Origin: Ruaniaceae bacterium KH17
GTDB taxonomy: Bacteria; Actinomycetota; Actinomycetes; Actinomycetales; Actinomycetaceae
Direction: 5' to 3'
Assembly (NCBI GenBank): GCA_900199505.1
Contig: FZQV01000008.1
Span: 1 to 64,000 of the forward strand
Length of the DNA: 64,000 nucleotides
Shown here: positions 42,121 to 50,825 of the stretch, piece by piece
How positions within the stretch are numbered: the first letter of the stretch is position 1
Layout of the letters: every line of letters begins with the position of its first letter
Notes under the pieces: generated by a model
The model's input: only the letters and a program-made list of their open reading frames with translations
Database searches by the model: none
Told to the model about the DNA's origin: nothing
Translations under genes and position numbers: made by a program

Positions 42121-45100
42121 CTAGCCGAGGCAACCGGGGCCGAGGAGCGCCTTGAGATCGCCGGAGAGGTCCGGGCCCGGCTCCACGCGGTAGCGGTCGC
42201 CGAGTTGCACCAAGTGGGAGCCGTCTCGTGCCACGACTCTCATGAACATGGGCGTATCGCCGGGGTGTCGCAACAGCAGGTCCCGCAGTTCCGTAATCAA
42301 CGGTTCGGTGCAGCGCGGCTCGGCGATTCGTAACGTGATCGGCGCAGACTTCGCGGCGTCCAGGGTGTTGAGGACTTCCAGTTCCTGCCCAATTGGTGTG
42401 GGCGCATCATCTCGAACTTGGATTCGGGCGGTCACCTTCACGACCTGGTCCGCCGCTAACGTGACCGCCACCTTCTGGTACTGGCCTGGGAAGAACATCA
42501 CCTCGGTCTCACCGGAGAGGTCCTCGACGGTCGCGATTGCCCAGGTCTTGCCCTGCTTCGTCACGCGCCGGGACACCGCGGTGACCAGTCCGGCGAGCGT
42601 CACGGTCGCGCCATCGCCGGGGCCGTCCAGGAGTTCTCCAATTTGGATCGACGCGGATCGGTCCAGTAGGTTCTCCAGCCCAAACAGCGGGTGATCGGAC
42701 ACGTAGAGGCCCAGCATTTCGCGCTCGAAGCCCAGCTTGTCGCTCTTCTCCCATTCCTCCAGATCGGGCACGGTGACCGTCATGGTCGGCTCGGCCGCCT
42801 CGTCCATCGAGAACAGATCGAATTGCCCGGCGGCCTCATTCCGCTTGATCGAAATGATCTCGTCGATCGCTTCTTCGTGGATCGCAACGAGTGCACGCCG
42901 GGTGTGGCCGAGCGAATCGAGCGCGCCCGCCTTCGTGAGCGATTCGATCACGCGCTTGTTGCAGACCTGGATCGGAACCTTCGAGAGGAAGTCCGAGAAC
43001 GAGGTGTACTCCCCCGCTTCACGTCCCTCGATGATCCCTTCGACCACGTGGATGCCCACGTTCCGGATGCCGGCAAGCCCGAACCGGATGTCCGTTCCCA
43101 CCGGGGTGAAGTTCTCGGATGAGGCATTCACATCGGGGGTGAGCACGGTGATCCCCATGCGGCGGCACTCGGAGAGGTAGGCGGCCATCTTGTCCTTGTT
43201 GCCCTGCGTGGAGGTCAACAGCGCCGCCATGTACTCCGTAGGGTAATTCGCCTTCAGGTAGGCGGTGTAATACGCGACGAGGGCGTAGGCGGCGGAGTGC
43301 GACTTGTTGAATGCGTAGCCGGAGAACGGGACGAGGATCTCCCAGAGCTTGTCGATGCATGCATCAGAATAACCGTTCTTGAGCATGCCTTCGCGGAAGG
43401 GAATCTTCTCCTTGTCGAGGATCTCCTTCTTCTTCTTACCCATGGCGCGCCGCAACATGTCTGCGCCACCGAGCGAGTAGCCAGCCACCTTCTGCGCGAT
43501 CGCCATGACCTGCTCTTGATAGACGATCAGGCCGTAGGTCGTGTCGAGGATCTCCGCGAGCGGCTCGGCGAGCTCGGGGTGGATCGGCTCCACCTTCTGC
43601 TGACCGTTCTTACGTAGTGCGTAGTTGGTGTGCGAGTTCGCGTCCATCGGGCCGGGCCGGTAGAGCGCAATGGTCGCCGAGATGTCCTCGAAGTTGTCCG
43701 GGCGCATCTGCCGCAGGAGTGTGCGGAGGCCACCACCGTCGAGCTGGAACACACCCAGCGAATCGCCGCGCGCGAGGAGCTGGTACGTGGGCTTGTCGTC
43801 AAATGGGAGGTGCTCCAGATCGGGCACGTCCTTACCGTTTGCCTCAATGTTCTCCAACGCGTCGGAGATCACCGTGAGGTTGCGCAGGCCGAGGAAGTCC
43901 ATCTTCAGCAGGCCGAGGTCCTCGCACAGTGGATACTCGAACTGCGTGATCTGGTAACCCTCCTTTGGGTGGCGCATCACGGGAATGATGTCCGTGAGCG
44001 GCTCCGAGGACATGATCACGGCGCAGGCATGCACGCCCCAGTTGCGCTTGATTCCTTCGAGCCCGGTCGCGAGATCGATGACCTTCTTGACGTCCGGGTC
44101 CTCGTGATAGAGCTGGCGTAGCCCCGTCGCTTCCCCATAGCGCTCGTAGGTCGAGTCAAACAGCTTGCCGAGCGGAATGTCTTTCGCCGCGACGGCGGGC
44201 GGGAACGCCTTAGAGATCGTGTCGCCCATCGCGTATGGGTAGCCGAGCACTCGTGCCGAGTCTTTGACGGCGGCCTTCGGCTTCATAGTGCCGAAGGTGA
44301 CCACCTGCGCCACGCGATCGTCGCCGTACTTCTCGGTCACGTACTCCATGACCTCGTCCCTGCGGCGATCATCGAAGTCCACATCGAAGTCCGGCATCGA
44401 GACGCGCTCCGGGTTGAGGAAGCGCTCGAAGAGCAGGCCATGCTCGATCGGATCCAGGTCCGTGATGCGCAGGGCGTAGGCAACCATCGAGCCGGGACCG
44501 GAGCCACGGCCGGGTCCCACGCGAATGCCGCGGTCTTTCGCCCAGTTGATGAAGTCCGCAACCACGAGGAAGTAGGCCGGGAATCCCATCTGCAGGATGA
44601 TCCCGGTTTCGTACTCGGCACGCTGGCGCACCTCCGAGGTGACACCCTCTGGGTAGCGGTACTCGAGGCCGCGCTCAACCTCCTTAATGAACCAACTCGT
44701 GACATCCTCACCCGCGGGGACCGGGAAGTTGGGCATGTAGTTGGCGCCGTCGGCCGTGGTACGGAACGAGACGTCGCATTGCTCGGCGATCAGGAGCGTG
44801 TTCGTGAGGGCTTCGGGGACATCCGCGAACGTGCGATACATGTCGTCCGTCTCGCGCAGATAGTACGTGTTGCCTTCGAAGGCAAATCGATCGGGATCGT
44901 CGAGCGTGGTGCCCGTGGCCAGACAGAGCATCGCCGCGTGCGTGTCCTGCTCATCGGCACTCACATAGTGTGAGTCGTTGGTGGCCACGAGTGGCGCGCC
45001 GATCTTCTTGGCGAGCTCGATCAGGTCCTTCTTGGTACGGTGCTCGATCTCGATCCCGTGGTCCATCAGCTCCACGTAGAAGTTCTCGCGGCCGAAGATG

Positions 45101-45636
45101 TCCTGAAACTCCCCCGCCGCGTCGATCGCCTCGTCGAGTTGCCCGAGCCGCAGCCGAGTCTGAACCTCACCGGAGGGGCATCCGGTTGTGGCGATCAATC
45201 CTTCGCCGTACGTGTTCAACAGCTCGCGGTCCATGCGCGGCCATTTGCCCCATTGTCCCTCCAACGAGGCGTGTGAACCCATCCGCATCAGATTGTGGAG
45301 ACCGGTGTTGTTCTTCGCCCACATCGTCATGTGGGTATATGAACCACGCGAGGAGACGTCATCTTTGCTCTGCTCGGGCGTACCCCAGGTAACCCTGGTG
45401 CGATCCCGCCGCGATGTCCCTGGTGTCAGGTACGCTTCGATCCCAATGATTGGCTTCACACCGTACTTCTGGGCAGTCTTGTAGAAGTCGTACGCGCCAA
45501 AGAGATAGCCGTGATCGGTGATCCCGAGCGACTTCTGGCCGTTCTCAACCGCCTTCTGAAAGAGCGGGTCCAGCTTCGCCGCCCCGTCCAGCATCGAGTA
45601 CTCGGTGTGAACGTGGAGGTGAGCAAAATCCGGCAT
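42121..45636 (-). CDS. dnaE: DNA polymerase III alpha subunit
   Basis: A 1171-aa C-family replicative polymerase. The PHP domain begins FAHLHVHTEYSMLDGA (ATG 45636, not the upstream start). The polymerase core contains GPGRGSGPGSMVAYALRITDLDP and PDFDVDFDDRRRDEVMEYV with the catalytic aspartates (about residues 390-430), then a helix-hairpin-helix region and a C-terminal OB-fold (about 985-1060). It is the DnaE1 type of high-GC Gram positives. -10-like TACACT 7 nt before the ATG. Confidence 0.98.
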   Translation of the reverse strand: MPDFAHLHVHTEYSMLDGAAKLDPLFQKAVENGQKSLGITDHGYLFGAYDFYKTAQKYGVKPIIGIEAYLTPGTSRRDRTRVTWGTPEQSKDDVSSRGSYTHMTMWAKNNTGLHNLMRMGSHASLEGQWGKWPRMDRELLNTYGEGLIATTGCPSGEVQTRLRLGQLDEAIDAAGEFQDIFGRENFYVELMDHGIEIEHRTKKDLIELAKKIGAPLVATNDSHYVSADEQDTHAAMLCLATGTTLDDPDRFAFEGNTYYLRETDDMYRTFADVPEALTNTLLIAEQCDVSFRTTADGANYMPNFPVPAGEDVTSWFIKEVERGLEYRYPEGVTSEVRQRAEYETGIILQMGFPAYFLVVADFINWAKDRGIRVGPGRGSGPGSMVAYALRITDLDPIEHGLLFERFLNPERVSMPDFDVDFDDRRRDEVMEYVTEKYGDDRVAQVVTFGTMKPKAAVKDSARVLGYPYAMGDTISKAFPPAVAAKDIPLGKLFDSTYERYGEATGLRQLYHEDPDVKKVIDLATGLEGIKRNWGVHACAVIMSSEPLTDIIPVMRHPKEGYQITQFEYPLCEDLGLLKMDFLGLRNLTVISDALENIEANGKDVPDLEHLPFDDKPTYQLLARGDSLGVFQLDGGGLRTLLRQMRPDNFEDISATIALYRPGPMDANSHTNYALRKNGQQKVEPIHPELAEPLAEILDTTYGLIVYQEQVMAIAQKVAGYSLGGADMLRRAMGKKKKEILDKEKIPFREGMLKNGYSDACIDKLWEILVPFSGYAFNKSHSAAYALVAYYTAYLKANYPTEYMAALLTSTQGNKDKMAAYLSECRRMGITVLTPDVNASSENFTPVGTDIRFGLAGIRNVGIHVVEGIIEGREAGEYTSFSDFLSKVPIQVCNKRVIESLTKAGALDSLGHTRRALVAIHEEAIDEIISIKRNEAAGQFDLFSMDEAAEPTMTVTVPDLEEWEKSDKLGFEREMLGLYVSDHPLFGLENLLDRSASIQIGELLDGPGDGATVTLAGLVTAVSRRVTKQGKTWAIATVEDLSGETEVMFFPGQYQKVAVTLAADQVVKVTARIQVRDDAPTPIGQELEVLNTLDAAKSAPITLRIAEPRCTEPLITELRDLLLRHPGDTPMFMRVVARDGSHLVQLGDRYRVEPGPDLSGDLKALLGPGCLG

Positions 45637-45761: not shown

Positions 45762-46049
45762 TTAGTCGAGTCCCTCCGCCGTCCGCCCAAGAGATACCCC
45801 AGACTGCGGGCCGTGAGCATCGTCGAGCTCAGCGAGCAGCGCTCGCCGTTCCTCCTTCAGTAGCTCGATCAACTGACGAGTGTCCTCCTGGTCAGCGATA
45901 TCCCGAACTACTTCTGCTCCATGCATGCCCAGCTGTACGTCAAGTGCTGACTCTTGACTTGCCAGTCGACGCTCAACCGCTGTGAGTCGGCGCTCGACGT
46001 CGACGGGAGTGTCCTGCGTACCCAGCAAATCGCACCAGTGGTCAGTCAC
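45762..46049 (-). CDS. Small coiled-coil protein of unknown function
   Basis: 95 aa from GTG 46049, which has AGGGG 8 nt upstream; an upstream TTG start would lack a ribosome site. Charged, heptad-like helix (VERRLTAVERRLASQE and LIELLKEERRALLAELDD), no signal peptide. Divergent from the DUF6308-like gene, 135 bp away. A similar small coiled-coil ORF stands in the same place at the second copy of the module, suggesting a functional pair. Confidence 0.6.
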   Translation of the reverse strand: MTDHWCDLLGTQDTPVDVERRLTAVERRLASQESALDVQLGMHGAEVVRDIADQEDTRQLIELLKEERRALLAELDDAHGPQSGVSLGRTAEGLD

Positions 46050-46078
46050 CGAGTCTTCCCCTCTCGCCTTTCGAAACA

Positions 46079-46138
46079 CGCTATATCGGAGCACTGACAA
46101 GAGCCCTCCGCGCCGTGTGGGTGGCCTGCCCTAAGCTC
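46079..46138. repeat. Duplicated intergenic segment, copy 1
   Basis: A 60-bp segment from CGCTAT to CTAAGCTC, about 75-80 % matched by 47779-47837. It lies upstream of the first DUF6308-like gene and probably carries the shared promoter region. Confidence 0.6.
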
Positions 46139-46184
46139 GAAATCGCAAGCAATAAGTGTGCCAATCAAACGGAAGGGCAGCGCG

Positions 46185-46889
46185 ATGAAGCCCGCACCCA
46201 CGATCCCAGAGATCCTCCTAGACGAAGACCTCCCGGCGGAGCTCCTACGTGACTACTTCAACCTCCGTAATCCTCAGACCCTGCCCTACTTCTCTGGAGC
46301 CAAGTTCGAGACGCTCGGTCACCGTTGGGATCAAGCCTCCACGACGAACAAAATCACTCCGGAGGATCTCCTCGCAGTCTCATGCTTGGCTGTGAATATC
46401 CCGGGCCGCGCAGCAATCAACATTCTTGAAGAGCAGAAGAAGGACATCACGAAGCTGCTCGAGCAGATACCCGACACTAGCTTGACCTTGTGGGACGCCA
46501 GAGAGAGCGACATCGACACGAGCTCTGCCATGAACAACCTTTGGAATCTACTCAACTCGAATCACAACATGGGCCCGACGACGATCAGTAAGCTGATGGC
46601 TCGCAAACGCCCCAATTTGATTCCCATTTTCGACAGTGTTGTCAGTTCCGCACTCGACCTAAAGAAGTCAACGAACCACTGGACAACGATGCGCGATCTG
46701 ATGGTGACATCTGTCGAAGGCGAACTGCTCCATATCCGACTCCAGCGCCTCGTCGACAAGATCGAACTCGACTATGTGACACCACTTCGAGCATTCGACG
46801 TGATCGTGTGGTACTTCAAGAATCCGAGGCTCAATAAGCGACGACATGAGGAGGGCCTGACTCTGGCATCGGAGCGACCCATTGGGTGA
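46185..46889 (+). CDS. DUF6308-like protein, intact copy
   Basis: 234 aa from ATG 46185 with GGAAGGG 8 nt upstream. Recognisable segments: YFSGAKFETLGHRWDQ, KITPEDLLAVSCLAVNIPG, SKLMARKRPNLIPIFDSVV (about 140-158) and LDYVTPLRAFDVIVWYFKNPR (near the end, shown in part). I believe this is the family listed as DUF6308, mostly actinobacterial and without known function; the match is from memory. No membrane or signal segments. Paralogous to 47904-48570. Confidence 0.7.
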   Translation: MKPAPTIPEILLDEDLPAELLRDYFNLRNPQTLPYFSGAKFETLGHRWDQASTTNKITPEDLLAVSCLAVNIPGRAAINILEEQKKDITKLLEQIPDTSLTLWDARESDIDTSSAMNNLWNLLNSNHNMGPTTISKLMARKRPNLIPIFDSVVSSALDLKKSTNHWTTMRDLMVTSVEGELLHIRLQRLVDKIELDYVTPLRAFDVIVWYFKNPRLNKRRHEEGLTLASERPIG

Positions 46890-47056
46890 GCCCGTCTGAA
46901 CTTGCTGCCAACCCCCGCTCTGAATCGCCGTTGCCCGAAGTACGGAATGTGCGTGGACGGCTGGATGCTCACCTGGTTTCGACTTCAGCCCCTCCGGGCC
47001 TTCGCTCACGAGAACATGCGCCATGCCTTGGTGCCAGTCGGGTGGTCTCAGAGTGT

Positions 47057-47551
47057 TCATTCTTCTTCAACGAGTTCCGCCACTACGTCTTCGATTAGAC
47101 CAGTGAGGGCTTGACCAAAGGCTCTAGTCTCGCTCTCGGTGTCGAGGAAGACGAACTGAGTGCCATCGAGACTTGCGCCCATATAGGCTCGGCCACCTTC
47201 AGGCCCTGAAGGACTCGCGATTAGCGCGACTCGTGAATCGACCCCAAACTCTTCATCTAGGGGATCGATGACGGGGAGATCAGAAGCGAGATCAACGGCA
47301 ACTGCGAGATCATCGTTCCACGAGCTTATTGACGCCCTATAGCGCTCAAGCGCTGAACGTACGTTCGCAGATATCTCGCTGCGCAGTGTCACTGTCGCCG
47401 TCTCAGATGAGTTCTTCCCCTCAGTGACAACACCCATGGATAGCCAGGCCACATATGCTTCGTGCTTCTCCCGGAGCGCCTTGTTGTACGCATCGAAGAC
47501 AGATCTCTCTTCCTCGCGTGCATTCTGAATCGCATCCTCTGCCTCATCCAC
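47057..47551 (-). CDS. Unknown acidic protein
   Basis: 164 aa from GTG 47551. N-terminal helical region (about 1-35, IQNAREEERSVFDAYNKAL), middle region with helices, and a C-terminal alpha/beta part ending DVVAELVEEE. No recognised family. It starts 15 bp after the stop of a 54-aa gene on the same strand and has no good ribosome site, so translation may depend on that gene. The 167-bp gap before it (46890-47056) shows no feature. Confidence 0.55.
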   Translation of the reverse strand: MDEAEDAIQNAREEERSVFDAYNKALREKHEAYVAWLSMGVVTEGKNSSETATVTLRSEISANVRSALERYRASISSWNDDLAVAVDLASDLPVIDPLDEEFGVDSRVALIASPSGPEGGRAYMGASLDGTQFVFLDTESETRAFGQALTGLIEDVVAELVEEE

Positions 47552-47566
47552 CGTGATGGGGATAAA

Positions 47567-47731
47567 CTACCCGGAGTCCTTGAAGTACTTCCTAGGTTTC
47601 TCGACGCGGAGGACTGGCGAGAGCTCGGCACTGATCGTTGCTTTCTCAGCCCCCTCCAGTTCTGTAGCCAGAACCTGAACCTTCTCCGATACCCGTTGCA
47701 ACTCACTGAATAGCTCATCTTTCGATGGCAT
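47567..47731 (-). CDS. 54-aa coiled-coil protein
   Basis: ATG 47731 with AGGAG 7 nt upstream, TAG at 47567. The product starts MPSKDELFSELQRVSEKVQV and continues as a charged helix, ending KYFKDSG. Strong ribosome site and position equivalent to the small ORF of the first module support a real gene. Confidence 0.55.
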   Translation of the reverse strand: MPSKDELFSELQRVSEKVQVLATELEGAEKATISAELSPVLRVEKPRKYFKDSG

Positions 47732-47778
47732 CGCCCGGCTCCTGCCCAGTCATGACTCACCCATGCTGACCCTGTGAA

Positions 47779-47837
47779 CGCTATGCCGGACCACTGACAC
47801 GAACTCCCCACGCCGTGTCGTGGCCCGTCCTAAGCTC
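47779..47837. repeat. Duplicated intergenic segment, copy 2
   Basis: Counterpart of 46079-46138, upstream of the second DUF6308-like gene; shares CACTGACA, CGCCGTGT, GTGGCC and CCTAAGCTC at matching positions. Confidence 0.6.
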
Positions 47838-47903
47838 TGAAGTACAGACAGTTGGTACTCATCCGCAAAGCCGCTGGGTGCCACTCAGCGAAAGGCCCCT
47901 GCA

Positions 47904-48570
47904 ATGAGTTCGACGGCTTCCCTTCCTGCGATCCTCCATCCGGAGAATGATGCCCGAGCACGGGAGCTACTCAGCGACTACTTCACGTCACAGGATTGGG
48001 AAGGACATCCCAAGTTCAGCGGAGCGAAGTTCGAGAGCCTCGGCCACGCTTGGAACGAGACGGAGACGTCCAACAAGATCACTGCTTCTGACCTTCTCGC
48101 GGTGTCGTGTCTTTCCGTCAATGTTCCCGCAACCGCAACGATTGACATCCTCGGCGCCTCCGCAAGGGGAATCTCCGAGCTCCTCGCAGCAGTCCCGGAC
48201 ACGAATCTACCTATATGGGCTCCTGAAGCTGCCTACCAGATAGACGATCCTGAGTCCGAGATGCAACAGCTTTGGCGCCATCTTCGCAGTTACAAGGACA
48301 TGGGACCGGTGAAGACCAGCAAGCTAATGGCTCGAAAGCGTCCAAACCTCATTCCGATCTACGACGATGTAGTCGGAGCCGCGCTGGGAATTCCGAACTC
48401 ACTGGGACACTGGACCACCATGCGAGAGCAGATGCTAATCGAGCAGAGCGGGGGTTCCGTTGCACGAACGTCTCAAGGCAATGATCGAAGAGGAGAGTCT
48501 CGAATACGTGACCCCTCTGCGTGCCTACGATGTCATCGTCTGGTCCGCAAACAACCCCCGTCTCCAGTAG
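47904..48570 (+). pseudogene. DUF6308-like gene, second copy, frameshifted
   Basis: ATG 47904 (GAAAGG 8 nt upstream) reads as a paralogue of 46185-46889 (FSGAKFESLGHAWNE, DLLAVSCLSVNVPA, SKLMARKRPNLIPIYDDVV) until a run of five G at 48450-48454. Removing one G restores HERLKAMIEEESLEYVTPLRA and AYDVIVWSANNPRL up to TAG 48568-48570. As written the frame continues unrelated to 48593. Either a real mutation, a switchable homopolymer, or a sequencing error. Confidence 0.75.
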
Positions 48571-48635
48571 GGAGACCGAGGTTGTCCCGCTAGCTTCTGT
48601 GACAGTACACCTTCACTGTTCCGCTGACGATGCCT

Positions 48636-48682
48636 GATCTTGGCAGTCAGTGAACGCTATGCGTTCATTTCGCGCCAAGATC
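48636..48682. repeat. 47-nt nested palindrome, copy 1
   Basis: Outer arms GATCTTGGC/GCCAAGATC and an inner palindrome GAACGC-TAT-GCGTTC. Same length and architecture as 48787-48833; the bases between stems vary while both stems are kept. Confidence 0.75.
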
Positions 48683-48758
48683 GGGCCGCCAACCACTAAT
48701 TGGATCGTTCAACACGCACCAGGTTTCGTCCCCGGCCATCCGGGCCTGCGCTCAACGA

Positions 48759-49310
48759 TCAACCGAGATCTGGTGACTCGGTGCGGGATCTTGGCAGTGG
48801 ACGAACGCTATGCGTTCGCTGAGTGCCAAGATCATGCTGGGTCGGGCACCGCGACGAGGAAGAGACCACCTTGGACATGTCGTGGTGCCAGATGCCGGCG
48901 TCCAGGTAGCGCTCGCCCGAGACCGGTGCGTAACCGAGCCGACTGTAGAACTCCATCGCGTGTTCCTGCGAGGAGAGCACGATTGTCACCGCACCGTCCA
49001 CGGCATATCGTTCCGCAGCCCGCCGCTCCAAGTACTCCATCAGCCCGACGCCGATCCCGCGCCCCCGCGCAGCCGCCCGCACCGCGAGCCGTCCAATATG
49101 CACGTGCCCAGGAGAATCGAACAGCACCCGACCCGTCCCGAGGCACACGCCGTCGGACAGAGCCAGCGCATGAATCGTGGTGGGCTCCAGATCGAGCGCG
49201 TCCACTTCTTCCTCGATCGGCACCTTCTGCTCGTCCACGAACACTTCGTGCCGCACGGCCCAGGCCAGGTTCATGTCGCCGTGCGAGGCAACGTCCCGGT
49301 ACTCCGTCAT
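48759..49310 (-). CDS. GNAT-family N-acetyltransferase
   Basis: 183 aa. Acetyl-CoA site [23 protein letters not shown] (motif A, about 72-94) and [10 protein letters not shown] (motif B, about 121-130); ElaA/GNAT-like, substrate unknown. The conserved domain ends near [14 protein letters not shown] (about 150). The last 30 or so residues are encoded by the 47-nt palindrome and its flank and look like an accidental tail. ATG 49310 overlaps the rluD stop (ATGA). Confidence 0.88.
48787..48833. repeat. 47-nt nested palindrome, copy 2 (inside GNAT 3' end)
   Basis: Outer arms GATCTTGGCA/TGCCAAGATC (10 bp) and the same inner GAACGC-TAT-GCGTTC. It lies within the last 75 bases of the GNAT reading frame. 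Confidence 0.75.
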
Positions 49311-50227
49311 CCGCGCAGCACCTCCAGTGCGTGCGCCAAGTCCTCCGGATACTCCGACGTGAACGTGACGGTCTTACCCGTGAGCGGATGCTCAAATGAC
49401 AGCTCGACGGCGTGCAACCACTGCCGAATCAACCCCACCTCGCGCGCGAGCTTAGGATCGGCGCCATACATCGTGTCCCCCACGCAGGGATGCTTCGTGG
49501 CGGCCATGTGCACGCGGATCTGGTGCGTGCGCCCCGTCTCCAGATGCACCTCGAGTAGCGTGGCCCGCGGCATCATCTCCAGCGTCGAGTAATGCGTGAT
49601 CGACGGCCTGCCATTCGCCGTCACCGCCATCTTGAAATCCGCGCCGGGGTGCCGCCCGATCGGCGCGTCAATCGTGCCCTCGGACGGGTCCGGGTGCCCC
49701 TGCACCAGTGCGTGGTAGATCTTGCGCGGCGTGCGGTCGCGGAAGGCCTGCTTCAGGATCGAATACGCCTGCTCGGACTGCGCGAGCACCATCACGCCGG
49801 ACGTCCCCACATCGAGCCGCTGCACGATCCCCTGGCGCTCCGTGGCGCCTGATGTGGTGATCGGATACCCGGCCGCAAGAAGTGCACCGAGTACGGTGGG
49901 CCCCTCCCACCCAGGCGACGCATGCGCAGCCACGCCCACGGGCTTATCGATCACGATGATGTCGTCGTCCTGGTACAGAATCGTGAAGCCCTCGACTGGC
50001 GTGGGCACCACCTCGAGGCTGGGCTCATCGGGAATCGTCACGTCGAGGATCGTGCCCGCGCGCAACTTGTCCGATTTCGAGAGGGGACGGCCCTCGCAGA
50101 GCACGCCACCGCCGTCGGCCATGGCTGCCACCTTCGCCCGCGAGAGGCCCAGCATCCGCGCCAGCGCGGCATCGACTCGCTGGCCGTCCAGGCCATCGGG
50201 AACGGGTAGAAAACGAGATTCAGTCAT
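49307..50227 (-). CDS. rluD: RluD-family 23S rRNA pseudouridine synthase
   Basis: 306 aa from ATG 50227. N-terminal S4-like domain (about 13-65: [21 protein letters not shown]) and the catalytic motif HRLD-equivalent written [15 protein letters not shown] with the active Asp (about 136). The usual His of H-R-L-D is Gln here; this is seen in some family members. The start overlaps the lspA stop by 8 bp. Confidence 0.94.
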
Positions 50228-50825
50228 TCTCGGGGAGAATCGACTCCCGGCGCACGGGGCCGGGATCGTCGTCGGGTGGCGTGGACTTACTGGGGCGGGA
50301 GCCGTCGATCTCAATTCCCAGCACGGCCAGCATGGCAATGCCGACGGCGGCCAGCACGATCGCGATATCCGCGACGTTGCCGACGAAGAAGTTGCCATAC
50401 GCGATGAAGTCCACCACGTGCCCCTGGCCGAAGGACGGCTCACGGAAGAGCCGGTCAATCAGGTTACCGCCAGCCCCTCCCAGGAGCAGGCCGAGGCAGA
50501 CGGACCACCACACTGAGCCGAGTTGCCGGGCAACTCTGATCACGACGGCGATCACAACCAGGGCGATGATCGTAAAGATCCAGGTGGCCCCCGAGGCAAA
50601 CGAGAAGGCCGCGCCCGGGTTGAACACCAAGTAGAGGGTGAGCCAGTCCGCGATCAGGTTGATGCGGGACCCATCCGATAGAGCATGAACGGCCAGGAAC
50701 TTGGTGACCTGGTCGACGATAAGAACCCCCACGGAAACCAGCAGAACGATCCACACCAGGCGTCCGCTCGGCGCAGGCTTTCGCGTGCGCGGGGCGGCAC
50801 CAGGCTCGATGCTGTGGCGTCCCAT
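50220..50825 (-). CDS. lspA: Lipoprotein signal peptidase
   Basis: 201 aa, four membrane segments. Family boxes: [10 protein letters not shown] (first), [20 protein letters not shown] and VVDFIAY...NVADIAI with the two catalytic aspartates (about 116 and 145). It processes prolipoproteins such as those encoded at 3765 and 21819. Cytoplasmic Pro/basic N-tail and an acidic C-tail of about 25 residues. GGAGGA precedes the ATG. Confidence 0.96.

What the first reader, a model, noticed from the sequence alone, without database searches (positions are those of the whole stretch)
45762..48593. Duplicated divergent module: small coiled-coil ORF against a DUF6308-like gene, second copy frameshifted at G5
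Two DUF6308-like paralogues share about 60 bp of upstream DNA and each faces a small coiled-coil ORF on the other strand. The second copy loses its conserved C-terminus (YVTPLRAYDVIVW) through one extra G in a G5 run. Extra unknown genes lie between. The pairing of a small helical protein with a larger unknown protein in an accessory island recalls toxin-antitoxin or defence modules, but nothing proves this.
Basis: partly seen in the sequence, partly recalled or inferred. Interest (0 to 1): 0.55.

Follow-up and report, generated by a model that had tools for sequence, protein, structure and literature searches.

The report
DNA-damage-inducible glycosylase-like gene pair
Two old copies of an uncharacterised bacterial gene next to the main DNA polymerase gene appear to sit under DNA-damage promoters and to encode a protein folded like DNA-repair glycosylases, and the second copy is probably decaying.

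Summary
Two DUF6308 genes (46185-46889 and 47904-48593, +) sit beside dnaE. They share 65 aligned upstream columns (52 identical), and copy 2 loses its C-terminus by a frame change near 48427-48457. The "small coiled-coil ORF" of copy 2 is the start of a longer frame cut by one TAG (47569), so copy 2 carries two lesions.

The shared DNA explains the module: it holds back-to-back promoters of the RecA-NDp/PafBC DNA-damage type, exact toward the small ORFs, imperfect toward DUF6308. The genome has 22 exact sites (0 for the reversed pattern), in front of recA, uvrB, uvrD, dnaB and dnaX among others, and it encodes PafB and PafC.

Two confident DUF6308 models match mainly HhH-GPD DNA glycosylases (33 of 43 and 50 of 50 rows shown; middling Z). 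The motif Asp is kept in 21 of 31 members found without using that motif, and is lost in a divergent branch. Neighbours elsewhere include restriction and helicase genes; relatives of these small ORFs appear in 0 of 86 DUF6308 loci.

Best reading: a damage-induced HhH-GPD-fold protein acting on DNA, probably a divergent glycosylase for repair or defence. A toxin-antitoxin pair is not supported. Induction and activity are untested.

The parts
   Evidence: no match in 148 other genomes or below E 0.6 in 86 loci
46078..46099 (-). exact RecA-NDp/PafBC promoter motif TGTCAGTG-N8-TAGCGT, ending 28 nt before the cc1 GTG
   Evidence: consensus in PMC5656591 (passage) and PMC8151990 (passage)
46116..46137 (+). 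RecA-NDp-like motif with one mismatch (TGTGGGTG-N8-TAAGCT), toward DUF6308 copy 1
46185..46889 (+). DUF6308 copy 1, 234 aa from ATG (GTG at 46158 possible); intact, HhH-GPD-like fold
47778..47799 (-). exact RecA-NDp/PafBC promoter motif TGTCAGTG-N8-TAGCGT, before the copy-2 partner
47815..47836 (+). degenerate RecA-NDp-like motif toward DUF6308 copy 2
   Evidence: 2 mismatches in one form, 5 in the published form at its fixed spacing
47904..48593 (+). DUF6308 copy 2, frame broken between 48427 and 48457; likely decaying
42121..45636 (-). dnaE, neighbour; DUF6308 also lies beside dnaE in 4 other loci

Best explanation
Each module is a divergent pair under back-to-back DNA-damage promoters of the RecA-NDp type, activated by PafBC. 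When single-stranded DNA accumulates, PafBC would switch on the DUF6308 gene and its small divergent neighbour together with recA, uvrB, uvrD, dnaB and dnaX. DUF6308 is a divergent HhH-GPD-fold protein. It probably binds DNA through its hairpin and a conserved Arg-Lys-Arg, and most likely excises or otherwise acts on an abnormal or foreign (phage- or plasmid-borne) base in a monofunctional, MutY-like way, with the motif Asp (D150) and the nearly invariant D61 as catalytic pair. Module 1 is intact; module 2 is an old paralogue now decaying on both strands. Shown: DUF6308 membership, promoter motifs, PafBC genes, the set of sites, both breaks, conserved residues. Well supported: the fold. Inferred: damage induction of these genes, DNA binding, catalysis, substrate, the role of the small ORF.
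For: Promoters: 22 exact TGTCRGTG-N8-TANNNT sites in the genome, 0 for the reversed control. Of 17 ORFs behind them that I scanned, 14 have a Pfam match, among them RecA, UvrB, UvrD, DnaB, DnaX, an RNase_T exonuclease and a PDDEXK_1 nuclease. Two of the 22 lie in the shared block. The two WYL genes found in the genome match PafB and PafC chains at E 2.6e-37 and 2.4e-22. The block is 80% identical while third codon positions are 35% identical. Orthologues: a motif with at most 2 mismatches in 9 of 55 DUF6308 upstreams against 13 of 445 others, p 2e-4; published hexamer with at most 1 mismatch, 9 of 55 against 17 of 445, p 9e-4 (the same nine loci). Fold: model pLDDT 93.9, first 33 of 43 rows HhH-GPD enzymes (32 so named), Z 6.7 to 3.1; second member pLDDT 94.6, 50 of 50 rows shown, Z 6.8 to 3.7. 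hhalign puts D150 on the catalytic-Asp column of Nth/MutY relatives, P 1.8e-4 to 6.8e-4. In members found without the motif, D61 is kept in 30 of 31 (one gap) and D150 in 21 of 31.
Against: Z is middling (under 8) and VIA-align only re-ranks Foldseek's picks; Foldseek alone is weak (best E 0.64). The first unrelated row (Fic, Z 3.0) ties with the last glycosylase rows. HMMER finds no PF00730 match at E up to 1; hhalign probabilities are 27 to 49%, 4% for a third subgroup, and no hhalign negative control was run. The catalytic Lys of bifunctional members is absent. D150 is kept in only 7 of 16 members of related genomes; seven of the nine without it also lack R202 and D205. The 58-row counts are biased, because the scan that found 45 of the 58 asked for SKLMARKR or the LIPxxD stretch. 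The promoters toward DUF6308 are imperfect. 46 of 55 orthologue upstreams lack a close motif, the nine include near relatives, and the control regions include genes inside operons. D61 as the acid rests on spacing and recalled MutY numbering.
Confidence: 0.55

Rival explanations
1. Toxin-antitoxin-like pair: DUF6308 is a DNA-damaging toxin and the small helical ORF its antitoxin, both damage-induced.
For: Divergent pair with promoters kept twice; small helical-looking partner; DUF6308 on 14 plasmid records.
Against: No match of the 112-aa and 164-aa ORFs in 148 other genomes, no match of any of the small ORFs below E 0.6 in 86 DUF6308 loci; the two small ORFs are unlike each other; upstream gene on the same strand in 38 of 53 loci; intact DUF6308 stands beside very different genes.
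Confidence: 0.08
2. HhH-GPD-fold protein without glycosylase activity: a DNA-binding or base-modifying accessory of repair or restriction machines (as the 5-hydroxymethyl-dU DNA kinases, which I recall as related to this fold).
For: Weak similarity beyond the hairpin; neighbours are helicases, nucleases and methylases, which suggests an accessory to many systems; catalytic Lys absent; 10 of 31 members found without the motif lack D150.
Against: D61 is kept in 30 of 31; D150 is kept in both window copies and in all 7 plasmid members.
Confidence: 0.3
3. Ordinary accessory gene of no special function; the shared upstream DNA is only remains of a duplication.
For: Patchy presence: own genome and 18 of 148 others, own genome and 18 of 395 others of the phylum; several broken copies.
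Against: The block is far better kept than silent sites (80% against 35%), and two exact sites of a 22-site set lie in it.
Confidence: 0.08
4. The breaks in copy 2 are assembly errors and copy 2 is a working gene.
For: The tail beyond the break keeps the conserved motif and coding potential in the other frame; the genome is in 72 contigs and no reads are at hand.
Against: A second independent lesion, the in-frame TAG at 47569 in the divergent partner; other members are also broken (L103 and L107 internal stops; L037 and L039 split).
Confidence: 0.25

Closest known systems
HhH-GPD DNA glycosylases (MagIII, MutY, Nth, Ogg, AGOG)
   Same: Predicted fold over most of the chain; G-x-G hairpin then P-x-x-D at the catalytic Asp column
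   Different: No PF00730 match; hairpin continues into a conserved R-K-R-P stretch; no catalytic Lys; the Asp is lost in a divergent branch; no activity known
PafBC / RecA-NDp regulon of Actinobacteria (PMC5656591, PMC6789036, PMC8151990, PMC8223512, PMC11804915; passages read)
   Same: Exact promoter motif, PafB and PafC encoded, classical repair genes behind the sites
   Different: DUF6308 is named in no passage I read; here the sites are arranged back to back; induction not measured
Brig1 phage-defence DNA glycosylase (PMC11078745; passages read)
   Same: Idea of a glycosylase as defence, found near other defence genes
   Different: [quoted passage not shown] DUF6308 is HhH-GPD-like
DUF6308 (PF19827)
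   Same: Both copies are members
   Different: No paper in the library searched holds DUF6308 or PF19827

Membership tests
DUF6308 (PF19827) | match above Pfam's curated cut-off | tested here: met
   191.1 and 139 bits against 27.3
HhH-GPD superfamily | alpha-helical two-lobe glycosylase fold | tested here: met
   two models; 33 of 43 and 50 of 50 rows shown; Z up to 6.7 and 6.8, middling
HhH-GPD superfamily | helix-hairpin-helix G-h-G followed by the conserved Asp | tested here: met
   both window copies carry it; hhalign alignment; D150 in 21 of 31 members found without the motif
HhH-GPD superfamily | match to the Pfam model PF00730 (a usual label, not a strict requirement) | tested here: not met
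   none at E up to 1
Bifunctional HhH-GPD lyases (Nth/Ogg type) | catalytic Lys in the hairpin | tested here: not met
   Thr aligned to the Nth Lys in the window protein; the Lys role is recalled
HhH-GPD superfamily | base excision activity | not testable with these tools
   needs purified protein
PafBC regulon | TGTCRG-N10-TA-N3-T promoter | tested here: met
   exact for cc1 and the copy-2 partner; 1 mismatch for DUF6308 copy 1; degenerate for copy 2
PafBC regulon | PafB and PafC in the genome | tested here: met
PafBC regulon | PafBC-dependent induction by DNA damage | not testable with these tools
   needs expression data
Toxin-antitoxin system | conserved two-gene unit | tested here: not met
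   0 of 86 loci have a match to any of the small ORFs below E 0.6
Uracil DNA glycosylase superfamily (Brig1) | match to PF03167 | tested here: not met
   none at E up to 1
ZacABC defence system (PADLOC name) | window proteins match a component model | tested here: not met
   no PADLOC match at E up to 1; in L036 ZacA, ZacB and ZacC matches precede DUF6308

The most novel reading that the evidence does not exclude
DUF6308 is a new family of HhH-GPD-fold DNA glycosylases that serve as DNA-damage-triggered anti-phage or anti-plasmid enzymes, removing modified or foreign bases, plugged into many restriction and helicase systems in Actinobacteria and placed under PafBC, so that the SOS-independent damage response also arms immunity.
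Probability: 0.2. Interest if true: 0.78.

Novelty: new variant of a known kind. Interest (0 to 1): 0.5.

Why it matters
It gives a family of unknown function a testable fold, residues, regulator and setting. If right, it adds a glycosylase-like branch to the PafBC damage response and links that response to defence genes; in this genome exact PafBC-type sites also precede a BrxA gene and a likely DNA methylase gene. Glycosylase-based immunity has one described example in what I read, Brig1 of another superfamily (passages).

Tried and rejected
Sequence search of solved structures for DUF6308 found nothing useful (best E 0.96 for the protein, 1.5 for the profile). Phage records and viral contigs gave no relative, the latter scanned with one protein and so for close relatives only. 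The viral fold library gave no match at E 0.001 or better. PADLOC had no match for the window proteins and NCBIfam only one weak one (E 0.039, far under its cut-off) for the 112-aa ORF. The idea that the upstream block is a dyad operator was dropped: 494 and 98 of 500 shuffles reach the observed score. The block as a whole is not found upstream of 34 orthologues beyond chance (best rank 5% of shuffles); only the short promoter motif is. dnaE adjacency (4 of 60 loci) was first taken as an inherited place, but the rows are not one clade (at least 4 changes forced; 95 of 500 shuffles as low). Neighbour enrichment was not calibrated: 277 PADLOC families matched among 106 neighbours, but the table lists 25 families and not how many neighbours matched; Pfam names among the same neighbours include plain housekeeping families.

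Rows dropped: of 60 loci, 45 entered the main alignments (A3, A4); 15 were left out as near copies, fused, partial, or with a stop in the coordinates I used. A3 also holds 5 of 16 intact relative members; the rest, mostly divergent, were left out and were counted later. Upstream scans used 55 of 60 (not L074, L102, L110, L112, L113). Six loci had no called DUF6308 gene.
Full report
What is there. The window lies on a contig of an unnamed actinobacterium (inferred from the matches; 2.72 Mb, 72 contigs). Between dnaE (42121-45636, -) and a run that I read as GNAT, rluD and lspA (48759-50825, -) lie two + strand DUF6308 genes, 46185-46889 and 47904-48593, each facing a - strand ORF. Copy 1 covers the whole Pfam profile. 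Copy 2 stops matching at position 156 of 193 and continues in another frame. The lost part still has coding character in that other frame, so the break is recent or an error of the assembly. Two lesions on opposite strands make decay more likely than one sequencing error, though no reads are at hand.

Age and the upstream block. The paralogues are 50% identical in protein and 35% at third codon positions, so silent sites are close to randomised. Yet 52 of 65 aligned columns upstream are identical, with a score that none of 500 shuffles reached. Such DNA is kept by selection (inference).

What the block is. It carries two promoters of the published type tTGTCRgtg-8nt-TannnT (PMC5656591, passage; TGTCRG-N10-TA-N3-T in PMC8151990, passage), which PafBC activates in mycobacteria after binding single-stranded DNA (PMC6789036 and PMC11804915, passages). 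Toward the small ORFs both copies are exact (46078-46099 and 47778-47799); toward DUF6308 copy 1 has one mismatch and copy 2 is degenerate. The genome holds 22 exact sites and none of the reversed pattern. I took the longest ORF of at least 60 aa started within 250 bases of each site (none at two sites) and scanned 17 of them besides those of the window: 14 have a Pfam match. They include RecA, UvrB, UvrD, DnaB, DnaX, an RNase_T exonuclease, a PDDEXK_1 nuclease, and also BrxA, a likely DNA methylase, a DUF4062 protein, a HATPase and a LysM protein. The two WYL genes found in the genome are adjacent and match PafB and PafC structures best. The regulon is well supported by sequence; expression is not measured.

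Is it a habit of DUF6308? Among 55 of 60 homologous loci, 9 have a motif within two mismatches in the 200 bases upstream, against 13 of 445 other upstream regions of the same loci (p 2e-4). With the published hexamer and at most one mismatch it is 9 of 55 (the same nine) against 17 of 445 (p 9e-4), and for exact sites 4 of 55 against 5 of 445 (p 0.011). The controls include genes inside operons, which favours my reading. The nine include a Cellulomonadaceae, a Scrofimicrobium and several Arthrobacter genes, some near copies. Of ten operon heads scanned where DUF6308 follows another gene, three have a site within one mismatch, one exact in Mycolicibacterium (no separate control). Fifteen loci of relatives and plasmids had none within two mismatches. 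So damage control is likely for part of the family only.

Fold. An alignment of 47 sequences gave a model of mean pLDDT 93.9. Foldseek alone is weak (best E 0.64) but ranks MutY and Ogg first. Realigned by VIA-align, which only re-ranks Foldseek's picks, the first 33 of 43 rows are HhH-GPD enzymes (32 so named; row 26 is unnamed and recalled as AGOG), Z 6.7 to 3.1; the next row, a Fic protein, is at 3.0. A second member (Cellulomonas, pLDDT 94.6) gave 50 HhH-GPD rows of 50 shown, Z 6.8 to 3.7. Z under 8 can mean a common arrangement, but lists this pure are hard to get by chance (inference). Profile comparison with Nth and MutY relatives drawn from related genomes aligns the hairpin GxGPTxxSKLMARKRPxLIPxxD with GVGxxTAxxVL...VD, placing D150 on the catalytic Asp column (P 6.8e-4, 3.3e-4, 3.2e-4, 1.8e-4), weaker for a third subgroup (P 9.6e-3).

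Conserved residues. In the 58 rows of A3, D61, R140, K141, R142 and P147 are invariant, D150 is in 56, and R202, D205 and W209 are in 57 with one gap. These counts flatter the motif, because 45 of the 58 rows come from a scan that asked for SKLMARKR or LIP[IV][YFW]D[SD]V[VI]. In 31 members found by Pfam profile or tblastn instead (16 of related genomes, 7 of plasmids, 8 of the phylum), D61 is kept in 30 (one gap) and D150 in 21: 7 of 16, 7 of 7 and 7 of 8. Seven of the nine relatives without D150 have also lost R202 and D205 but keep D61, R140 and R142. This joint loss fits one active site that a divergent branch has given up (inference). Both window copies keep D61 (N-terminal numbering of copy 1), the Arg-Lys-Arg and D150. 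The Lys of bifunctional enzymes is a Thr in the window protein. D61 lies where MutY has its catalytic Glu by spacing (recalled numbering, inference).

Setting elsewhere. DUF6308 is patchy: the own genome and 18 of 148 others, the own genome and 18 of 395 others drawn from the phylum, one of these under the cut-off, 14 actinobacterial plasmid records, 0 phage records. The titles of the 60 loci are all actinobacterial as far as I know the names. Genes next to it include Mrr and HsdM (L093), RAMA/HSDR_N (L105), SIR2 (L083), UvrD (L091), NERD-UvrD (L103), DnaB_C (L111), EVE/Mrr (L068) and a weak UDG-like gene overlapping DUF6308 (L061, E 0.0046), and ZacA, ZacB and ZacC matches just upstream in L036. 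CBASS genes and a methyltransferase lie within a few kb on two plasmids. Other neighbours are plain housekeeping genes, and enrichment was not calibrated. I found no constant partner.

dnaE. DUF6308 lies beside dnaE in 4 of 60 loci besides the window (L056, L095, L104, L111; L111 also shares rluD and lspA). On the tree these are not one clade, so the place was reached more than once or kept and often lost.

Verdict. The toxin-antitoxin reading fails its own test; the defence reading is possible. The most likely account is a damage-induced HhH-GPD-fold protein acting on DNA bases, with the function still to be shown. No paper in the library holds DUF6308, DUF6361 or their Pfam numbers.

Noticed in passing
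48632-48686 and 48787-48833: Palindromic repeats GATCTTGGC..GAACGCTATGCGTTC..GCCAAGATC, part of a dispersed set with 15 places in the genome within one mismatch of the core.
   Followed up: partly
L175, L179, L184, L172 (own genome): Exact PafBC-type sites precede a BrxA gene, a likely DNA methylase, a DUF4062 gene and a PDDEXK_5 nuclease: defence-type genes inside the presumed damage regulon.
   Followed up: partly
L030, L034, L036: DUF6361 / PLD-like / helicase triad next to divergent DUF6308 genes; scanned as ZacABC only in L036, the others by resemblance of their starts.
   Followed up: partly
L038, L040-L045: A divergent DUF6308 branch in related genomes that has lost D150, R202 and D205 together but keeps D61, R140 and R142.
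   Followed up: partly
L169 and L171: The same 22-base PafBC-type site stands at two places of the genome with no ORF of 60 aa started within 250 bases.
   Followed up: no
L062, L065, L067, L070, L101: A gene 2 bp after DUF6308 in Arthrobacter; the L062 copy has a weak NucS_C and a PDC-S11 match.
   Followed up: partly
L050, L051: On two plasmids DUF6308 follows, by 14 bp, a small gene that looks like an OB fold by eye; the L050 copy has no Pfam match.
   Followed up: partly
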